24,343 nt of DNA from Sphingobium sp. CCH11-B1 (GTDB lineage Bacteria > Pseudomonadota > Alphaproteobacteria > Sphingomonadales > Sphingomonadaceae), in the NCBI RefSeq assembly GCF_001556865.1, contig NZ_LSJY01000116.1, forward strand, positions 1-24,343, in the 5' to 3' direction. The first letter of the stretch is position 1; the number at the start of each line of letters is the position of its first letter. This document shows positions 1 through 24,343 of the stretch, one piece after another. The translations under genes and the position numbers were made by a program. Under the pieces are notes generated by a model that was not told the DNA's origin, ran no database searches, and saw nothing but the letters and a program-made list of their open reading frames with translations.

Positions 1-274
1 CAACCATTGGCGAACGGGAAAAAGGAAGAGCAATGCAGGAATCAATTAGACAACATAACACTCATTCCTGAATGGGATACCGATTGACCGCATTGGTCAG
101 GGGCGGACGCGACCGTGTCTGGGAGCGTGTGGAGCGCCAACCGATGTCAGCTGCCTGCTACCAACAGCCTCGATTTCACTTTTGCATCGGGTCACACCTG
201 CCGCGCAGCTGCACATTGGGAAATCGTATAGCAGCGCCAACGTTGCCCCAATGCTGACGCTTTATGCGAAGGGT
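1..274. promoter_or_regulatory. Leader region upstream of the efflux operon
   Basis: No convincing gene is seen before the adaptor start. The stretch probably carries the efflux promoter, but I cannot place -35/-10 boxes with confidence. Two small inverted repeats are present: CATTC-CT-GAATG at 63-74 and TGACC-gcatt-GGTCA at 85-99. The second is the size of a regulator half-site pair, but 5-base arms are weak evidence. A 12-codon ORF at 33-71 follows a good Shine-Dalgarno (AAAGGAAG) and could be a leader peptide or chance. I see no CueR-like or CopR-like box. Confidence 0.3.
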
Positions 275-1264
275 ATGCATATTCGTCTGATTTTTGTTCC
301 TATCGTCCCTGCCGTCCTGCTGACCGCCTGCGGAAGCGAGCCTGCCTCGCCGCCCAAGCCGCCAGTTCACAGCGAGGCGGTCGCCCACGAAACCGAGCTT
401 GTCCGCCTGAAGCTCACACCGGAAGCGCAGAAGCGGCTTGGGATTGTGACCGAGCGGATCGGGACGGGCACCGCTTCCGTGATGCGAATGACGAGCGGCG
501 AGATCGTCATCCCAGCGGGTGTCGGCGGCGCGCCCATCAATTCTGCCAGCAATCTGCAACAGCTCTCGGCTCAGCAGGTCGCTGCCGATGGCGAACTTGC
601 GCGGGCACGGGCGCAGCTGGCCTTGGCGCGCGTCGCCTATGATCGTGCCTCGGCTCTGGTCGATGAGGAAGCGGGCAGCATTCGCGCGCGTGATGAAGCG
701 ACGGCGGCGCTCGGTGCGGCAAAGGCTGCTGCGGACGCGGCTGCGGCCCAGCGCCGCCTGCTCGGGCCAGCGGTGGCGAGCCTTGGCAACCAGCGCTACG
801 TCTGGGTTCGGGTGCCGGTGTTCGGGAGCGATCTTGCCGGGCTGCAACAAGGCCAGTCGGCGCTGATCTCGCCGCTTGGACAGGACGGCGCGAAACGATC
901 GGCGCGGCCCGTCGATGCGCCGCCATCGGCGAACGCAGTCGCTGGCACCGTCGATCTCTATTTCGCGCTCGACAATCGTGATCGGGCCTATCGTGTCGGC
1001 CAGCGGGTCAGCGTCGCGCTCCCGCTCGCTGGTGGGCGAAGCGAAGGGCTGTCCGTGCCGACCTCCGCAATCCTGCGCGACATCTATGGCGGCGAATGGG
1101 TCTATGCCAAGACCGAGGCCGACACCTACGTGCGCCAGCGGGTCGAGGTTGCCGCAACCGAAGATGGTCGTGCGATCCTCTCGCGGGGTTTGCGTCCCGG
1201 CACGCTGGTGGTCACGGCAGGTGCGGCTGAGCTGTTCGGCACCGAGTTTGGGGTCGCGCACTGA
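275..1264 (+). CDS. RND efflux periplasmic adaptor (membrane fusion) lipoprotein
   Basis: The 329-residue product should be the periplasmic adaptor linking the inner-membrane RND pump to the outer-membrane channel. The ATG at 275 was chosen over upstream in-frame starts at 182 and 251. It gives a clean lipoprotein signal peptide, a hydrophobic segment at residues 3-17 ending in lipobox LLTAC with Cys19, and GAAGG lies just before it. An Ala/Gln-rich helical stretch at about residues 95-170 fits the adaptor's coiled-coil hairpin. It is followed by a beta-barrel-like part and a membrane-proximal domain ending near residue 325. The protein is short for the family, and no clear lipoyl-type motif (AP..G.V) is visible on either side of the hairpin. 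It overlaps the pump gene by one base (TGATG), so translation is probably coupled. The adaptor role rests on context plus this architecture. Confidence 0.85.
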
Positions 1265-4200
1265 TGCTCGCCTGGCTGGTTCGCTCCGCGCTCAAGCAGC
1301 GCGTGCTGGTGCTTGCGATGGCGGCGCTCTTGGTGGTGCTTGGCCTGCGAGCGTCTGCCGATGTGCCGCTGGATGTCTTCCCCGAGTTCGCTCCGCCTAT
1401 CGTCGAGATCCAGACCGAAGCGCCGGGCCTGTCGACCGAGGAGGTCGAAAGCCTGATCACGGTGCCGATTGAGACCGCGGTCAATGGCGTGCCTGATCTG
1501 GCAACCCTGCGCTCGAAGTCGGTGCTGGGCCTCTCCTCGGTGACGATCCTGTTCGAGCGCGGCACCGATGTGATCCGTGCCCGGCAGCTGGTGCAGGAGC
1601 GGGTGACGCAGGTGCAGGCGCGATTGCCTGCCGCTGCCCGCCCGCCGGTGATGCTGCCGCCGCTGTCGTCCACAAGCCGGGCGATGAAGATCGGCATCTC
1701 CTCCAAGAAGCTCGATCAGATGCAGCTGTCCGAGCTCGTGCGCTGGACGATCCGGCCCAAGCTGATGTCGGTGGCGGGCGTCGCGAATGTCGCCGTCTGG
1801 GGCTACCGTGACCGGCAGTTGCAGGTGCTGGCCGATCCCGACCGGCTGCAAGCCTCGGGCGTTACGCTGGCTGAACTGCGCGCGGCGACCGGCGATGCGG
1901 TGCTGGTCGGCGGCGGCGGCTTTGTCGATACGCCCAACCAGCGGCTGCCCGTTCAACAGGCAGGCGCGATCCAGACCGCCGAGGACCTCTCCCGCACAGT
2001 CATCAAGATCGCAGGCGATGCGCCGGTGCGGGTGGGGGATGTCGCGCGGGTGACCGATGGCTTTGCAGCCCCCATCGGCAATGCGATCATCGACGACGGC
2101 CCGGGCATCATGCTGATCGTCGAGAAGCAGCCGACCGGCAACACGCTCCAGCTGACCCGCGACGTCGAGGCAGCGGTCGAAGAGCTGCGGCCCGGCCTCA
2201 AGGACGTCAAGATCGACACCACGATCTTCCGCCCGGCAACCTTCATCGAGAAGTCGATCGACAACCTGACCCGCGCGCTGATGATCGGCTGCCTGCTGGT
2301 GGCGATCGTGCTGTTCGCCTTTACCCGCGACTGGCGGCAGGCGATGATCAGCCTTGTGGCGATCCCGCTGTCGCTGCTGGCTGCGGGCCTCGTGCTGCTA
2401 TGGAGTGGGGCGACGATCAACACGATGGTGATCGCCGGGCTGGTGATTGCCCTTGGCGAGGTGGTCGATGATGCGATCATCGATGTCGAGAACATCGCCC
2501 GCCGTCTGCGCCTGAACCGCGAGGCGGGCAATCCGCGCTCGGCCTTTGCCGTGGTGCTCTCGGCCTCGCTTGAGGTGCGCACGGCGGTGGTCTTCGCCTC
2601 GCTGATCGTCATGCTGGTGTTCCTGCCGATTTTCTTCCTTGGCGGGGTGGCGGGGACGTTCTTCCGGCCATTGGCGATTGCCTATGTGCTGGCGATTGCC
2701 GCCTCGCTGCTGGTCGCGCTGGTGCTGACGCCTGCGATGTGCCTGATGCTGCTCCCCAATGCGCCGATGAAGGAGCATCGCGACACGCGCTTTGTCGCCT
2801 CGCTCAAGCAGCGCTATCTCGGCGTCCTGCCCCGGCTGATCGACCGGCCACGGCTTGCCATGGGCATCGTCGCGGGCGGCCTGCTGCTTTCTGGCGTGGG
2901 CTATCTAGGATTCAAAGACCAGTTCCTGCCCGACTTCCGCGAGACCGACTTCCTGATGCATTTCGTCGAGAAGCCGGGTGTCGGCATCGATGCGATGGAC
3001 CGCATCACCATCCGCGCCTCGAAGGAACTGCGCGCGATCCCCGGCGTGCGCAACTTCGGGGCGCATATCGGGCGTGCCGAGGCGGCCGACGAAGTGGTCG
3101 GCCCGAACTTCACTGAGCTGTGGATCAGCCTCGATGACGAGGCTGACTACGACGCCAGCGTTGCGCGCATCAAGGAAGTGGTCGAAGGCTACCCCGGCCT
3201 CTACCGCGACGTGCTCACCTATCTGCGCGAACGCATCAAGGAGGTGCTCTCGGGCGCGGGCGCGACCGTGGTGGTGCGGATCTACGGCCCCGATCAGGAC
3301 GAGCTGCGCGCCGCCGCCGAGCGGGTGCGCGGCAAGGTCGCCAGCATCCCCGGCGTCACCGATCTCAAGGTCGAACAGCAGGTGCTCGTGCCGCAGATCC
3401 AGATCCGCCCGCGCGCGGCCGATCTGGTCACGCTTGGCCTCACGCCGGGCGAGGTGCGGCGGCAGGCGCAGACCCTCGTGGCGGGCGAGAAGCTGGGCGA
3501 AATCTACCGCGACCAGAAGGCTTTCGATGTCGCCCTCTGGGGCGAGCCTGAAATCCGCGGGGACCAGCACGCGCTTGCCGATCTGATGATCCAGACCCCG
3601 GTCGGCGCGCCCGTCCGCCTGCGCGACGTCGCCGATGTGGTGATCGTGCCCGCGCCCAACGAGATCAAGCGTCAGGACGGCCAGCGCCGTCTCGATGTCA
3701 CGCTCAACATCAGCAGCGATGCCGATCTGGGCGCCGTGGCGCGCGGGGTCGAGGCAGCGGTGGGCGAGGTGCCCTTTGCCACTGGCTACCATCCCGAGAT
3801 CCTCGGCGAGTATGCGGCGTTGAAGGAGTCCCGCGAACGGTTGTGGACTGTCGGCCTGCTCTGCCTTGTCGGCATCCTACTGCTCGTCTGGCTCGAGTTC
3901 CGCTCGGCCCGGATCACCGCGCTGGTCGGCCTCAGCCTGCCTTTCGCGCTGGTGGGCGGGGTGATCGGGGTTGCACTGACCGGCGGTGTGCTGTCGCTGG
4001 GATCGCTGGTCGGCTTTGTCACCGTGATCGGGATTTCGGCGCGTAACGGGATCATGCTGCTCTCGCACTACGATCACCTGCGGCGGTTCGAGGGCGAGGC
4101 GTTCGGCCCGGCCCTGATCCTGCGCGGTGCGCAGGAGCGTCTGGTGCCGATCCTGATGACCGCACTGTGCGCAGGGCTTGCGCTGGTGCCGCTGGTGATC

Positions 4201-4368
4201 GCGGGCGACAAGCCGGGCCACGAGATCGAGCATCCCATGGCGATCGTCATCCTCGGCGGGTTGATCTCGTCGACGGCGCTCAACCTGTTCCTGATGCCCG
4301 CGCTCTATGCCCGCTTCGGCAAGGAACGCCCGGAGCCCGAGCCGGAACTGGCGGAGGCGGTGGCATGA
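1264..4368 (+). CDS. RND efflux permease, CzcA/CusA (heavy-metal efflux) class
   Basis: The 1034-residue product is a full-length RND proton antiporter for the inner membrane. TM1 lies at about residues 10-28, followed by a first periplasmic porter loop. Next come the TM2-TM6 block (about 335-490), a second porter loop, and the TM8-TM12 block (about 860-1020). TM4 carries the acidic motif [13 protein letters not shown] (D402, D403, D407, E409), which aligns with the proton-relay region of CusA and CzcA. The position equal to CzcA's first TM4 aspartate is Ala, as I recall for CusA. These features place it in the heavy-metal-efflux RND class rather than the AcrB class. The metal, or other substrate, cannot be read from sequence alone. 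It sits between its adaptor and its channel gene, with overlapping start and stop on both sides. Confidence 0.9.
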
Positions 4369-17463: not shown

Positions 17464-17974
17464 TCGCCTGATCCGCTCTGCGTCCGCGCGCCGTCTCGTG
17501 CTTTGGGGCGGGCTTGGCGCCGGGGCGCTGGCACTCTCCTCGCTCGCCGCCTTCGCTCAGGGCCACGCGCTCATGATCAACGTGAGCCCCAGCCTGCCCT
17601 ACTGGGCCCTCTGGGTGACGCGCGGGGCGGCCGTGCACCGCGGGGATATCATCCTTTTCGATCCGCCCGCTTCGTCGTTGCTGGTGAAGCATTTCGGAGC
17701 GGCGCCGAAACCGTTCGGTAAGCGGGTGAGCGGCGTGCCGGGCGACATCGTCACCGAGCAAAACCGCACCTACTTCGTCAACGGGCAGGCTGTCGCCAAG
17801 GCCAAGCTCACGAGCCGCCTTGGTGAACCCCTCGCGCTCGGCCCGACGGGCCGCGTTCCGAAAGGCTGCTATTTCGTCACAAGCGAACACAAGGACGGTT
17901 TCGACAGCCGCTACGCCGCAATCGGTTGGATTTGCTTCCCACGCATTCTCGGGGTCGGGAGGCCGATCCTGTGA
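17450..17974 (+). CDS. S26-family conjugative signal peptidase (RP4 TraF type)
   Basis: The 174-residue product has one N-terminal TM (about 17-36) followed by an S26 serine-lysine protease domain. The nucleophile is probably S48 in NVSPSLP and the general base K91 in GKRVSGVPGD. The later YFVTSEHKDGFDSRYAAIG matches the C-terminal S26 box. In RP4, TraF removes the pilin tail and cyclises it. Here the enzyme lies in an F-type operon, between trbI and traW, so the pilin TraA is the likely substrate (inference). The family motif SLP.G is altered to SLPYW. The ATG at 17450 has GGGAG upstream. Its stop overlaps the traW GTG. Confidence 0.88.
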   Translation: MLPADRLIRSASARRLVLWGGLGAGALALSSLAAFAQGHALMINVSPSLPYWALWVTRGAAVHRGDIILFDPPASSLLVKHFGAAPKPFGKRVSGVPGDIVTEQNRTYFVNGQAVAKAKLTSRLGEPLALGPTGRVPKGCYFVTSEHKDGFDSRYAAIGWICFPRILGVGRPIL

Positions 17975-18614
17975 GGCTCCTCACCTTCCCCATATGCGCC
18001 ACTGCGCTGGCGCTGGCCATAGCGCCAGAGGCAATGGCTCGCGATTACGGTCAGCACGGCACGGTCTGGCCAGTCATCGAACCGGACCTGCTGCAGCAGA
18101 TCCATGCCAGGCTTACGCAGCTCGAGAAGACCGGCGAGACCGCCCGCCTCAATGAGGAGCTGAAGCGGCGAACGATCGCCCGGGTCAACCGGCCTGAGCC
18201 TGTCGCAGGTCTCTCCCTCGCTCCGGCAACACGCAGCTGGCGTTTCGATCCGACGATCACCGTCGAGCGCGATATCGCCGACGATAAGGGCCGCGTCATC
18301 ATTGCCGCAGGCACTCGGGTCAATCCGCTCGATACCGTGCCGCTGCGGGCTCCCCTCGTCTTCCTCGATGGCGACGACACGGCACAGCTCGCCTGGGCCA
18401 CTCGTCGCTATGCCAGCACAAAGGCCAAGCTCATCCTCGTGCGGGGTGCGCCGCTCGAACTCATGAAAGCCCGCCAGCGGCGCTTCTACTTCGACCAAGG
18501 CGGCACGCTGGTGAAGCACTTCGGCATTCGGGCGGTGCCGGCAACCGTCGAGCAGCAGGGCCGCGCGCTTCTCATCACCGAACAGCCGGTGCCTCCCAAG
18601 GAGCGTGCGCCATC

Positions 18615-18618
<4 letters not shown>
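17971..18618 (+). CDS. traW: TraW, F-type pilus assembly protein
   Basis: The 215-residue product has a signal peptide cleaved after AMA near residue 23. The mature protein aligns along its length with F TraW (210) as I recall it: GTVWPVIEPDLLQ, RLTQLEKTGE, the RFDPTITVERDIADDKGRV region, VNPLDTVPL, FLDGDDTAQLAWA, KLILVRG and RFYFDQGGTLVKHFGI. It is periplasmic and acts with TrbC, TraU and TraF in pilus extension. The start is GTG at 17971, eight bases after GGGAGG. It overlaps the S26 peptidase gene upstream and traU downstream (ATGA). Confidence 0.95.
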
Positions 18619-22128: not shown

Positions 22129-22954
22129 GGCCGCGTGGCGGCTGCTTGCCGCCTGCGCGATTGCCAATGCCGCTTGCGGCCTTCCGCCCGCAAACGCGCA
22201 GATGACAACCACCCAGACCGATGCGCTGCCACGCGCCGAGACGAACGAGCGGCAGGACAGCTTCTACTGCGCGGAGCGCCGGCTTGGGTACTGGTTCTAT
22301 TGCAACCGGCCCAAGCCGCCGGAACAGAAGGCACCTGCGCCAGCGGCGAGCGCCACGAGCCAGCTTGACGCGATTACGGCGACCTTGCGGGAGCTCAAGG
22401 CCAAGGCGATCCTCGAGCCCACGCCTGCCAATGTGACGGCCTACATCCGGTTCCAGCGGGCCCAGCTCGACCGTGCGTCGCTCTTCAGCGACGTCTGGCA
22501 ACGGGCCATCTGGCAGAATCCCGAGCTCGACTACACGCTGCAGCGCCCGGTTTCGACACTCGGCAAGCGCCAGTGGCAGGATTCACGCACCGCGGAACGG
22601 AACGCGGCAATGGCCGAGCTCTCCGAGCGCTACGGGCTCTTCTACTTCTTCGCCCAGAGCTGCGGTGCCTGCGAGGTCATGTCGCCGATCGTACAGAGTG
22701 TGGCCTCGACCTGGCATATCGCTGTCCGCGCAATTTCGACTGATGGCGGCCCATCGCGGCATTTCCCGAATTACACGGTCGAGACCAACCAGCGCACCCG
22801 CATGGGCCTTGAGCCCAAGATTACGCCAGCTGTTGTGCTCTGGGATGCCCTGACCGGCCGCCCCATTCCGATCGGCTACGGCGTGATGAGCGCCGACGAG
22901 CTTCAGGACCGGATCTACCTCCTCACATCGAAGGAAGCTGGACGTGACTACTAG
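22109..22954 (+). CDS. traF: TraF, F-type periplasmic thioredoxin-like pilus assembly protein
   Basis: The 281-residue product has a signal peptide to about residue 31, then FYCAERRLGYWFYC, a family landmark, and a C-terminal thioredoxin-like domain. Here the domain keeps an active-site-like CGAC (C185, C188) in FFAQSCGACEVMSP, with a cis-Pro in ITPAVVLWD. F TraF itself is thioredoxin-like but, as I recall, lacks this CxxC pair, so this version may be redox active. The ATG at 22109 lies inside traN, with GAGG seven bases upstream; earlier in-frame starts have no signal peptide. It overlaps the traH GTG start by 11 bases. Confidence 0.93.
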   Translation: MPVHASKAAWRLLAACAIANAACGLPPANAQMTTTQTDALPRAETNERQDSFYCAERRLGYWFYCNRPKPPEQKAPAPAASATSQLDAITATLRELKAKAILEPTPANVTAYIRFQRAQLDRASLFSDVWQRAIWQNPELDYTLQRPVSTLGKRQWQDSRTAERNAAMAELSERYGLFYFFAQSCGACEVMSPIVQSVASTWHIAVRAISTDGGPSRHFPNYTVETNQRTRMGLEPKITPAVVLWDALTGRPIPIGYGVMSADELQDRIYLLTSKEAGRDY

Positions 22955-23945
22955 GATGAAAAGAGTCGTCGCTGCGATCCTTGCAGCCACCCTTCCTCTC
23001 ACCAGTGCATCGGCCGACGTCGGCAGTTCAATGGACTCGTTTCTGAACGACGTCGGCGGCGCAGCCAACGTCAACGGGCCGACCGCGTTTCAGGGGCAGT
23101 CGGCCGGCTATTACAGCCTGGGCAATGTCTGGACGCGCTTTCCCCAGAAGACGACCAACATTGCCAACCTGCAGCTGCCGCGCGCCCGCGCAGGGTGCGG
23201 CGGTATCGACATTTTCGCGGGGTCCTTCAGCTTCATCAACGCGAGCGAGATCGTGGCGATGCTGAAGGCGGTCGCCAACAATGCCGTCGGCTTCGCCTTC
23301 AGCCTGGCGATCGACACGGTCTGCCCGGAATGCTCGAAGATCATGCAGGAGTTCAGCCAGAAGGCTCAGCTCATGAACAACCTCAACATCAATTCCTGCG
23401 AGATGGCACAAGGATTGGTGGGCGGGATCTGGCCGAAGGGCGACCTTGCCGACAAAGCCGTCTGCGAAGCTATCGGCAACTCCGAAGGCATCTTCACCGA
23501 CTATGCCGCAGCCAAGCACGGCTGCGGCACCAGGGGGCAGCGTTCGAGCACGACTGCGCAAGGGTCGGGCAAGTATGACGACGTCAATCCCGGCGTGCCG
23601 CGAAACTACACCTGGACGATCCTCAAGAAGTCGGCGTTCTTCTCGCCCGGAGGCCGCTTCGACGAAGAGCTCGCCGAATATGCCATGACGCTGTTGGGCA
23701 CGATCATCTACGTGCCGCCCAAGGACGATGAACCGGGCAAGTTCGTGCCGATCGTTGGCGAAGCCTCGTCGACGCTTGTGACCTCGTTGCTGGATGGCAC
23801 CACGAATGGCAACGTCCTCATATTCGACTGCGACGAGACGGAGAAGTGCCTCAACCCAGGTTTCAAGTCGCTGAGCCTGCCCGCATCGAAAGCGCTGCGG
23901 CCGCGCGTCGCGGCGCTTTCGATGCGGGCAGGCTCAGCGACTTGA
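22944..23945 (+). CDS. traH: TraH N-terminal part (5' fragment of the broken frame)
   Basis: If translated as written, this frame gives 333 residues: signal peptide (to about residue 28) and the TraH body. Landmarks include the early GYYSLGNVWTRFP, the GCGGIDIFAGSFSFIN motif near residue 89 and the Cys-containing DTVCPECSKIMQEF segment. NVLIFDCDETEKCLNP marks the start of the conserved C-terminal part. The last eight or so residues (SMRAGSAT) are encoded by the second repeat arm and are not native TraH. The missing C-terminal quarter would probably make the fragment non-functional. The start overlaps traF by 11 bases. Confidence 0.8.
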   Translation: MTTRMKRVVAAILAATLPLTSASADVGSSMDSFLNDVGGAANVNGPTAFQGQSAGYYSLGNVWTRFPQKTTNIANLQLPRARAGCGGIDIFAGSFSFINASEIVAMLKAVANNAVGFAFSLAIDTVCPECSKIMQEFSQKAQLMNNLNINSCEMAQGLVGGIWPKGDLADKAVCEAIGNSEGIFTDYAAAKHGCGTRGQRSSTTAQGSGKYDDVNPGVPRNYTWTILKKSAFFSPGGRFDEELAEYAMTLLGTIIYVPPKDDEPGKFVPIVGEASSTLVTSLLDGTTNGNVLIFDCDETEKCLNPGFKSLSLPASKALRPRVAALSMRAGSAT

Positions 23946-24328
23946 AACAGGAACTGCTGCAGGTCGCATCGATCCCGCTCTACAAGATCCTGACCGTCCA
24001 GGCGGCCTATGGCCGCGGCATGCCGACCGACGACCGCGAGACCCTGGCCGAGATCGCCAGTGTCGACCTGCTGTTTGCTGTGCTAGACCGCATTGTCAAC
24101 GAGGCTGGCCGCTCAATGTCGAGCTTCATTGGGGCCGACGAAGCGAAGATCGCCATGTGGCAGAGCCAGGTCAATGTCGTGCGTCAGGCGCTGGCTGACC
24201 GGCAGGCCAACACGCATCTCAAGGTCAATGCGGTGCTGCAGATCATCGAGAAGACGGCGTTCATCGAGAACGTGCTGGCTGCCTCGATTGAGGATCAGCG
24301 TGCAATAGGCACCCCCTTCGTGGGGTGA
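23846..24328 (+). CDS. traH: TraH C-terminal part (3' fragment in the shifted frame)
   Basis: From about 23945 this frame reads KQELLQVASIPLYKILTVQAA, YGRGMPTDDRETLAEI and DLLFAVLDRIV, which fits the C-terminus of TraH. Residues encoded before that point come from the inverted-repeat region read in the wrong frame and are not family-like. The frame opens with a GTG at 23846 that has no convincing ribosome site, so independent translation is doubtful. It should be read as the tail of the interrupted traH, not as a separate gene. Fifteen bases remain to the window edge; a GTG at 24334 might start the next gene (traG in F order), but too little is visible to call it. Confidence 0.6.
   Translation: MPQPRFQVAEPARIESAAAARRGAFDAGRLSDLKQELLQVASIPLYKILTVQAAYGRGMPTDDRETLAEIASVDLLFAVLDRIVNEAGRSMSSFIGADEAKIAMWQSQVNVVRQALADRQANTHLKVNAVLQIIEKTAFIENVLAASIEDQRAIGTPFVG
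23860..23948. repeat. traH: Perfect 36-base inverted repeat (89-base palindrome) inside traH
   Basis: Arm 1 (23860-23895) and arm 2 (23913-23948) are exact reverse complements over all 36 bases, separated by 17 bases. As RNA the pairing continues inward to 23901/23907 with two G-U pairs, giving 42 pairs around a 5-base loop (23902-23906). No T tract follows. Arm 1 reads as TraH in frame. Arm 2 does not, and the frame changes across it. The inner part (about 23891-23917) is a natural quasi-palindrome produced by the codons of KALRPRVAAL. Confidence 0.97.
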
Positions 24329-24343
24329 TCGGCGTGCAAAAAG

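What the first reader, a model, noticed from the sequence alone, without database searches (positions are those of the whole stretch)
23860..23948. Fold-back palindrome exactly at the traH frameshift
A perfect 36-base inverted repeat sits where TraH coding moves from one frame to another. Arm 1 encodes TraH-like residues in frame, while arm 2 is its exact reverse complement and encodes nothing TraH-like. Upstream and downstream TraH sequence is intact. The centre is a natural imperfect palindrome. This is the signature expected if a nascent strand folded back at that quasi-palindrome, copied itself for about 30 bases and then returned to the template, replacing native codons. The alternative is a library or assembly fold-back artefact.
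Basis: partly seen in the sequence, partly recalled or inferred. Interest (0 to 1): 0.8.

Follow-up and report, generated by a model that had tools for sequence, protein, structure and literature searches.

The report
Fold-back copying error inside traH
A DNA-transfer gene in a sphingomonad mobile element appears to have been broken when the copying machinery briefly folded back and copied its own new strand, leaving a near-perfect hairpin; the process is known, and this looks like a clean natural example.

Summary
23860-23899 and 23909-23948 are 40-nt inverted arms with one mismatch (36 nt perfect) around a 9-nt loop. No other spaced exact 18-nt inverted pair lies within 500 nt in 842 kb of window plus relatives. 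Of 80 related traH loci, 79 span the site: all keep a native 113-114 nt stretch, none has arm 2. Against L002, 56 native bases after 23917 are replaced by 31 bases that are the exact reverse complement of 23860-23890; the departure point is a native quasi-palindrome, 8 of 9 paired. This is a '3-2-1-4' template switch; the frame is lost.

Two additions. traH is also cut at 24288/24289 by an IS21-family left end, so 'downstream intact' is only partly right. The window carries about 55 nt of mobile-element sequence at each end, the mark of a k=55 de Bruijn contig (PMC10914622), and has no other frame-breaking indel against G001. A stray chimeric read is therefore unlikely, but without reads an artefact is not excluded. 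The junction was found nowhere else searched.

The parts
22944..23945 (+). Upstream part of traH, 333-aa open frame ending at a stop inside arm 2
   Evidence: ORF list; Pfam TraH PF06122, E 3.1e-92, profile 1-291 of 358
23860..23899 (+). Arm 1 of the inverted repeat, native traH sequence; 23860-23890 is the stretch that was copied
   Evidence: identical in L002
23891..23917 (+). Native quasi-palindrome at the departure point: 9-nt arms 23891-23899 and 23909-23917, 8 of 9 paired, 9-nt loop
   Evidence: identical in L002
23909..23948 (+). Arm 2; first 9 nt native, the rest copied
23918..23948 (+). Copied tract, 31 nt, exact reverse complement of 23860-23890, standing where L002 has 56 native nt
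23949..24288 (+). Downstream part of traH, native sequence in another frame (ORF 23846-24328)
   Evidence: Pfam TraH, E 3e-6, profile 304-357 of 358
24289..24343 (+). Left end of an IS21-family element inserted in traH; the window ends 55 nt into it
   Evidence: 100% identity over exactly these 55 nt in 7 of 15 plasmid records matched; in L085 it lies 60 nt before istA; traH homology of relatives stops at 24288
1..55 (.). About 55 nt of mobile-element sequence at the left end of the contig
   Evidence: 1-55 match two plasmid records at 96.4%, in one of them 164 nt after an IS110 transposase gene; no transposase is annotated beside it in the other

Best explanation
One replication template switch in the cell made the hairpin. 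While traH was being copied, the 3' end of the new strand, just past a natural quasi-palindrome (23891-23917), folded back and paired with the strand made shortly before. It was extended for 31 nt with that strand as template (23890 back to 23860), then released and returned to the true template further ahead. The result is an inverted repeat with 40-nt arms, a net loss of 25 nt, loss of frame and a broken traH. Shown: the sequence relations, the native state in relatives, the quasi-palindrome at the switch point. Inferred: that it happened in the cell and not in the tube, that the route was intrastrand, and the direction. An IS21-type insertion 340 nt downstream cuts off the gene's end as well; the order of the two hits is unknown.
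For: Exact 31-nt reverse-complement copy and exact return to native sequence. 79 of 79 readable relatives native. 8-of-9 native pairing at the departure point; only 10 of 24,183 window positions pair that well at this spacing. Pattern 3-2-1-4 with point 2 before point 1, which permits an intrastrand switch, one of the two majority patterns in great apes (PMC7954356, passages); in E. coli the nascent strand is known to template itself at quasi-palindromes and to make them more perfect (PMC7202029, abstract and first of four parts of the text). No other frame-breaking indel between window and G001 over 53-24288. Ends of about 55 nt in mobile elements on both sides point to a k=55 de Bruijn contig (PMC10914622, passages); there a better-covered native path would normally have been kept (recalled).
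Against: Known from this one contig; the junction was not found in any search made. No bases of microhomology at the return point. The native strand is not unusually structured (z +0.33, 130 of 200 shuffles fold as well), and with any loop of 3-30 nt such 8-of-9 quasi-palindromes are common in this DNA (197 in 24,343 nt). E. coli quasi-palindrome mutations are described as perfecting an existing palindrome; here the arms grew from 9 to 40 nt with a 25-nt net loss.
Confidence: 0.85

Rival explanations
1. Library or assembly artefact: a fragment folded back at the quasi-palindrome in the tube, was extended, and the chimeric reads were assembled.
For: Chimeric reads at natural inverted repeats and palindromes are documented for sonicated and enzymatic libraries, including long ones with two complete complementary parts (PMC10908179, passages). 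Junction found only here. No reads or coverage are held.
Against: The described artefacts are soft-clipped reads behind low-frequency calls; here the sequence returns to the template further on and continues for 340 nt. The contig is otherwise free of frame-breaking indels against G001. A k=55 assembly should keep the better-covered path (recalled).
Confidence: 0.12
2. A real template switch by another route: interstrand, or begun from the right-hand side on the other strand, with the quasi-palindrome serving as the return point. (A variant inside the 0.85 above, not added to it.)
For: The four-point description does not fix the strand, and PMC7954356 notes that many events fit both routes.
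Against: The only homology is at the left switch point, 8 of 9; the right one has none, which favours priming on the left.
Confidence: 0.15
3. The hairpin is a working element, such as a recoding signal at which ribosomes change frame and join the two TraH parts.
For: The two frames overlap by 100 nt, 23846-23945, and a strong hairpin is possible (DNA fold).
Against: 0 of 79 relatives have it; the copied tract replaces TraH codons with unrelated ones; the gene is also cut by an IS end; overlapping open frames are frequent in this 64.7% GC window.
Confidence: 0.01

Closest known systems
Quasi-palindrome-associated template-switch mutations of E. coli (PMC7202029; abstract and first of four parts read)
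   Same: Starts at an imperfect inverted repeat, the new strand templates itself, and the repeat becomes more perfect.
   Different: Here the copied tract runs 31 nt past the old 9-nt arm, replaces 56 native nt and causes a net loss of 25 nt; it is inferred from relatives, not seen to occur.
Short-range template switches of type 3-2-1-4 (four-point model, great apes; PMC7954356, passages)
   Same: Order of the four switch points; result is a single inverted repeat.
   Different: Bacterial conjugation gene in place of ape genomes; one event, scored by eye and script, not by their pair-HMM.
Structure-specific chimeric reads of library preparation, PDSM model (PMC10908179, passages)
   Same: Reverse-complement extension from a natural inverted repeat or palindrome.
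   Different: Described as soft-clipped reads behind low-frequency calls; here an assembled contig returns to the template.

Membership tests
Quasi-palindrome template-switch mutation | Imperfect inverted repeat present before the event at the switch point | tested here: met
   8 of 9 pairs, loop 9, in the window and identical in L002
Quasi-palindrome template-switch mutation | New sequence is an exact reverse complement of the nearby strand, and pairing increases | tested here: met
   31 of 31 nt; arms grow to 40 nt with one mismatch
Quasi-palindrome template-switch mutation | Return to the original template | tested here: met
   Native sequence resumes at 23949; no microhomology at the return
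Quasi-palindrome template-switch mutation | Arises during replication in the cell | not testable with these tools
   No reads, no source DNA; own assembly not held
Template switch type 3-2-1-4 | Order of switch points 3-2-1-4 on the ancestral sequence | tested here: met
   23860, 23890, 23917, then the native base matching 23949, with L002 as stand-in for the ancestor
Library chimera (PDSM) | Low-frequency, soft-clipped reads at the repeat | not testable with these tools
   No reads held; definition from passages
F-type T4SS TraH (PF06122) | TraH profile and F-type neighbours | tested here: met
   Both pieces match PF06122; TraF, TraN, TraU, TraC, TrbI-type and TraL domains in neighbours; no Pfam hit for ORF 17926-18618
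IS21-family element at the right end | Shared end sequence next to istA/istB | tested here: met
   L085: match 3501-3555, istA from 3616, istB after it. In L084 the nearest istB/istA lie from 5054 on, on the other strand, with nothing annotated between, in a gene table that the tool calls incomplete

The most novel reading that the evidence does not exclude
traH is a recurrent loss-of-function target in this family of sphingomonad conjugative elements: transfer is repeatedly switched off by IS insertions, frameshifts and, here, a fold-back template switch, which may have been provoked by the same replication stress or repair as the IS insertion beside it.
Probability: 0.1. Interest if true: 0.5.

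Novelty: new member of a known kind. Interest (0 to 1): 0.3.

Why it matters
In this case the near-ancestral sequence, the priming quasi-palindrome and all four switch points can be read directly, in a natural bacterial mobile element. One copying error built a 40-nt hairpin and broke a conjugation gene at once. It is also a useful test case for telling real fold-back mutations from assembly artefacts. The mechanism itself is known.

Tried and rejected
Looked for the junction elsewhere. Plasmids with window:23895-24000: no match, but that search was weak, since not even native traH was found with so short a query. A 27-nt junction word with up to 3 mismatches: 0 of 98 relatives and 0 of 397 family genomes; the two sets share some genomes, and how many carry a traH was not counted. 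The exact word: none in IMG/VR nor in the 86 loci held then. Junction peptides: none in the 120 proteins listed (best 120 of 868), nor in those plus the 70 (190 in all).

The native strand is not unusually structured. The return point has no microhomology. In one search the L001 row failed because a 14-nt anchor is not in L001; its 'native nt replaced' figure is meaningless and is not used (L001 does differ from the window at 23915). Lineage substitutions: the traU row is empty because L002 does not cover that gene, and the traH numbers are too small to date the event. One search counts 3 plasmid records with a place of 99% or more; they were not among the 40 listed and I did not look at them (perhaps the IS end). 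Functional-hairpin and recoding readings were dropped because no readable relative has the hairpin.

Full report
What is there. The window holds an efflux-pump gene of the AcrB/AcrD/AcrF family (1264-4368) and an F-type conjugation region with TraL, TrbI-type, TraC, TraU, TraN, TraF and TraH genes. At 23860-23948, inside traH, lies an inverted repeat with 40-nt arms, one mismatch and a 9-nt loop; 36 nt are perfect. This is far beyond chance: the two longest comparable hairpins in 827,025 bases of 83 loci have 18-nt arms with a mismatch. Exact 18-mer pairs within 500 nt outside the window were only self-overlapping short palindromes or N runs.

The native state. The genome scan kept the best 80 of 279 loci with a traH relative. 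Across the site 79 could be read (L037's contig ends there): 75 have 114 nt between the flanks and 4 have 113, the latter because the alignment edge slipped by one (judged by eye). None has arm 2. Read from about codon 52, the frame runs to a stop at codon 478 or 482 in 76 of 80. The other four are L027 and L057 (foreign DNA in traH), L035 (stop at codon 174) and L037 (contig end).

What changed. L002 (Sphingomonas ginsenosidimutans record; 95.8% over 1.5 kb) is identical to the window from 23860 to 23917. There the window departs: 31 nt (23918-23948) are the exact reverse complement of 23860-23890 and stand where L002 has 56 nt, after which native sequence resumes. With L002 as stand-in for the ancestor, the order of the four switch points is 3-2-1-4. 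PMC7954356 (passages) names 3-2-1-4 and 1-4-3-2 as the majority patterns in great apes, and states that an intrastrand switch needs point 2 before point 1, which holds here.

Why there. The 27 nt before the departure point are a native quasi-palindrome, 8 of 9 pairs with a 9-nt loop; 10 of 24,183 window positions pair that well at this spacing. Allowing any loop of 3-30 nt there are 197 such sites, so the motif alone is not rare. Fold-back priming predicts such a site (PMC7202029, abstract and first of four parts). The return has no microhomology, and the native strand as a whole is not specially structured; a stall may have been the trigger (inference).

Mutation or artefact. No reads are held. 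Three points favour a mutation. First, the alignment to G001 over 53-24288 has, outside the fold-back, only indels summing to 15 nt (2+2+11 within 11 bases), 6 and 12 nt. Second, both ends of the window lie in mobile-element sequence for about 55 nt. The right end is 55 nt of an IS21-type end, 100% in 7 of the 15 plasmid records matched, all 7 from the same first base (istA follows in L085). The left end matches two plasmids over 1-55 at 96.4%, in one of them 164 nt after an IS110 transposase gene. [quoted passage not shown] So the window is most likely a whole contig of a k=55 assembly (inference), in which the better-covered of two paths is normally kept (recalled). Third, library chimeras at inverted repeats are described as soft-clipped reads behind low-frequency calls (PMC10908179, passages), while here the sequence returns to the template; the same paper also reports longer chimeric reads. 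Against: the junction is known from this contig only.

Consequence. TraH loses its frame between positions 291 and 304 of the Pfam profile, and the upstream frame stops at 23945. Independently, an IS21-type end cuts the gene at 24288/24289. That TraH is needed for F-type pilus assembly and transfer is recalled, not tested. Changes assigned to the window's lineage in traH are 3 synonymous and 0 other upstream, 2 and 2 downstream: too few to date the loss, and no sign of long decay.

Verdict. It is a clear natural case of a known mutational process, provided the contig is faithful. Probability 0.85 for a real template switch, 0.12 for an artefact.

Noticed in passing
L027 about 6080 and L057 about 6087 (window equivalent about 23998): In two traH relatives (Sphingobium jiangsuense, Croceicoccus hydrothermalis records) homology stops at the same traH site, within 1 nt, and foreign DNA of about 93 and 82 nt follows to the contig end. 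L027's tail matches 98 plasmid records, 4 of the 8 listed annotated as IS3 family transposase; L057's tail matches 81, none of the 8 listed named as a transposase.
   Followed up: partly
L035, traH near codon 174: A metagenome-assembled relative has an early stop in traH.
   Followed up: no
proteins P0001, P0008, P0121, P0183: Predicted TraH proteins whose frame seems to change within or next to the same segment (read by eye); long-read error or real frameshifts, not tested.
   Followed up: no
protein P0006: A TraH of 98% identity to the window from a JGI contig lacks four residues just before arm 1, by eye perhaps a slip between two short direct repeats; its DNA was not seen.
   Followed up: no
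window 53-24288 against G001 C1 5726-29989: The region is colinear with G001 (contig length equal to that of the record behind L011, Novosphingobium meiothermophilum), with identity varying from 100% to about 87% per kb: a mosaic that suggests recombination.
   Followed up: partly
window 1-55 and 24289-24343: Mobile-element ends of about 55 nt on both sides, a sign that the window is a whole de Bruijn contig of k=55.
   Followed up: yes
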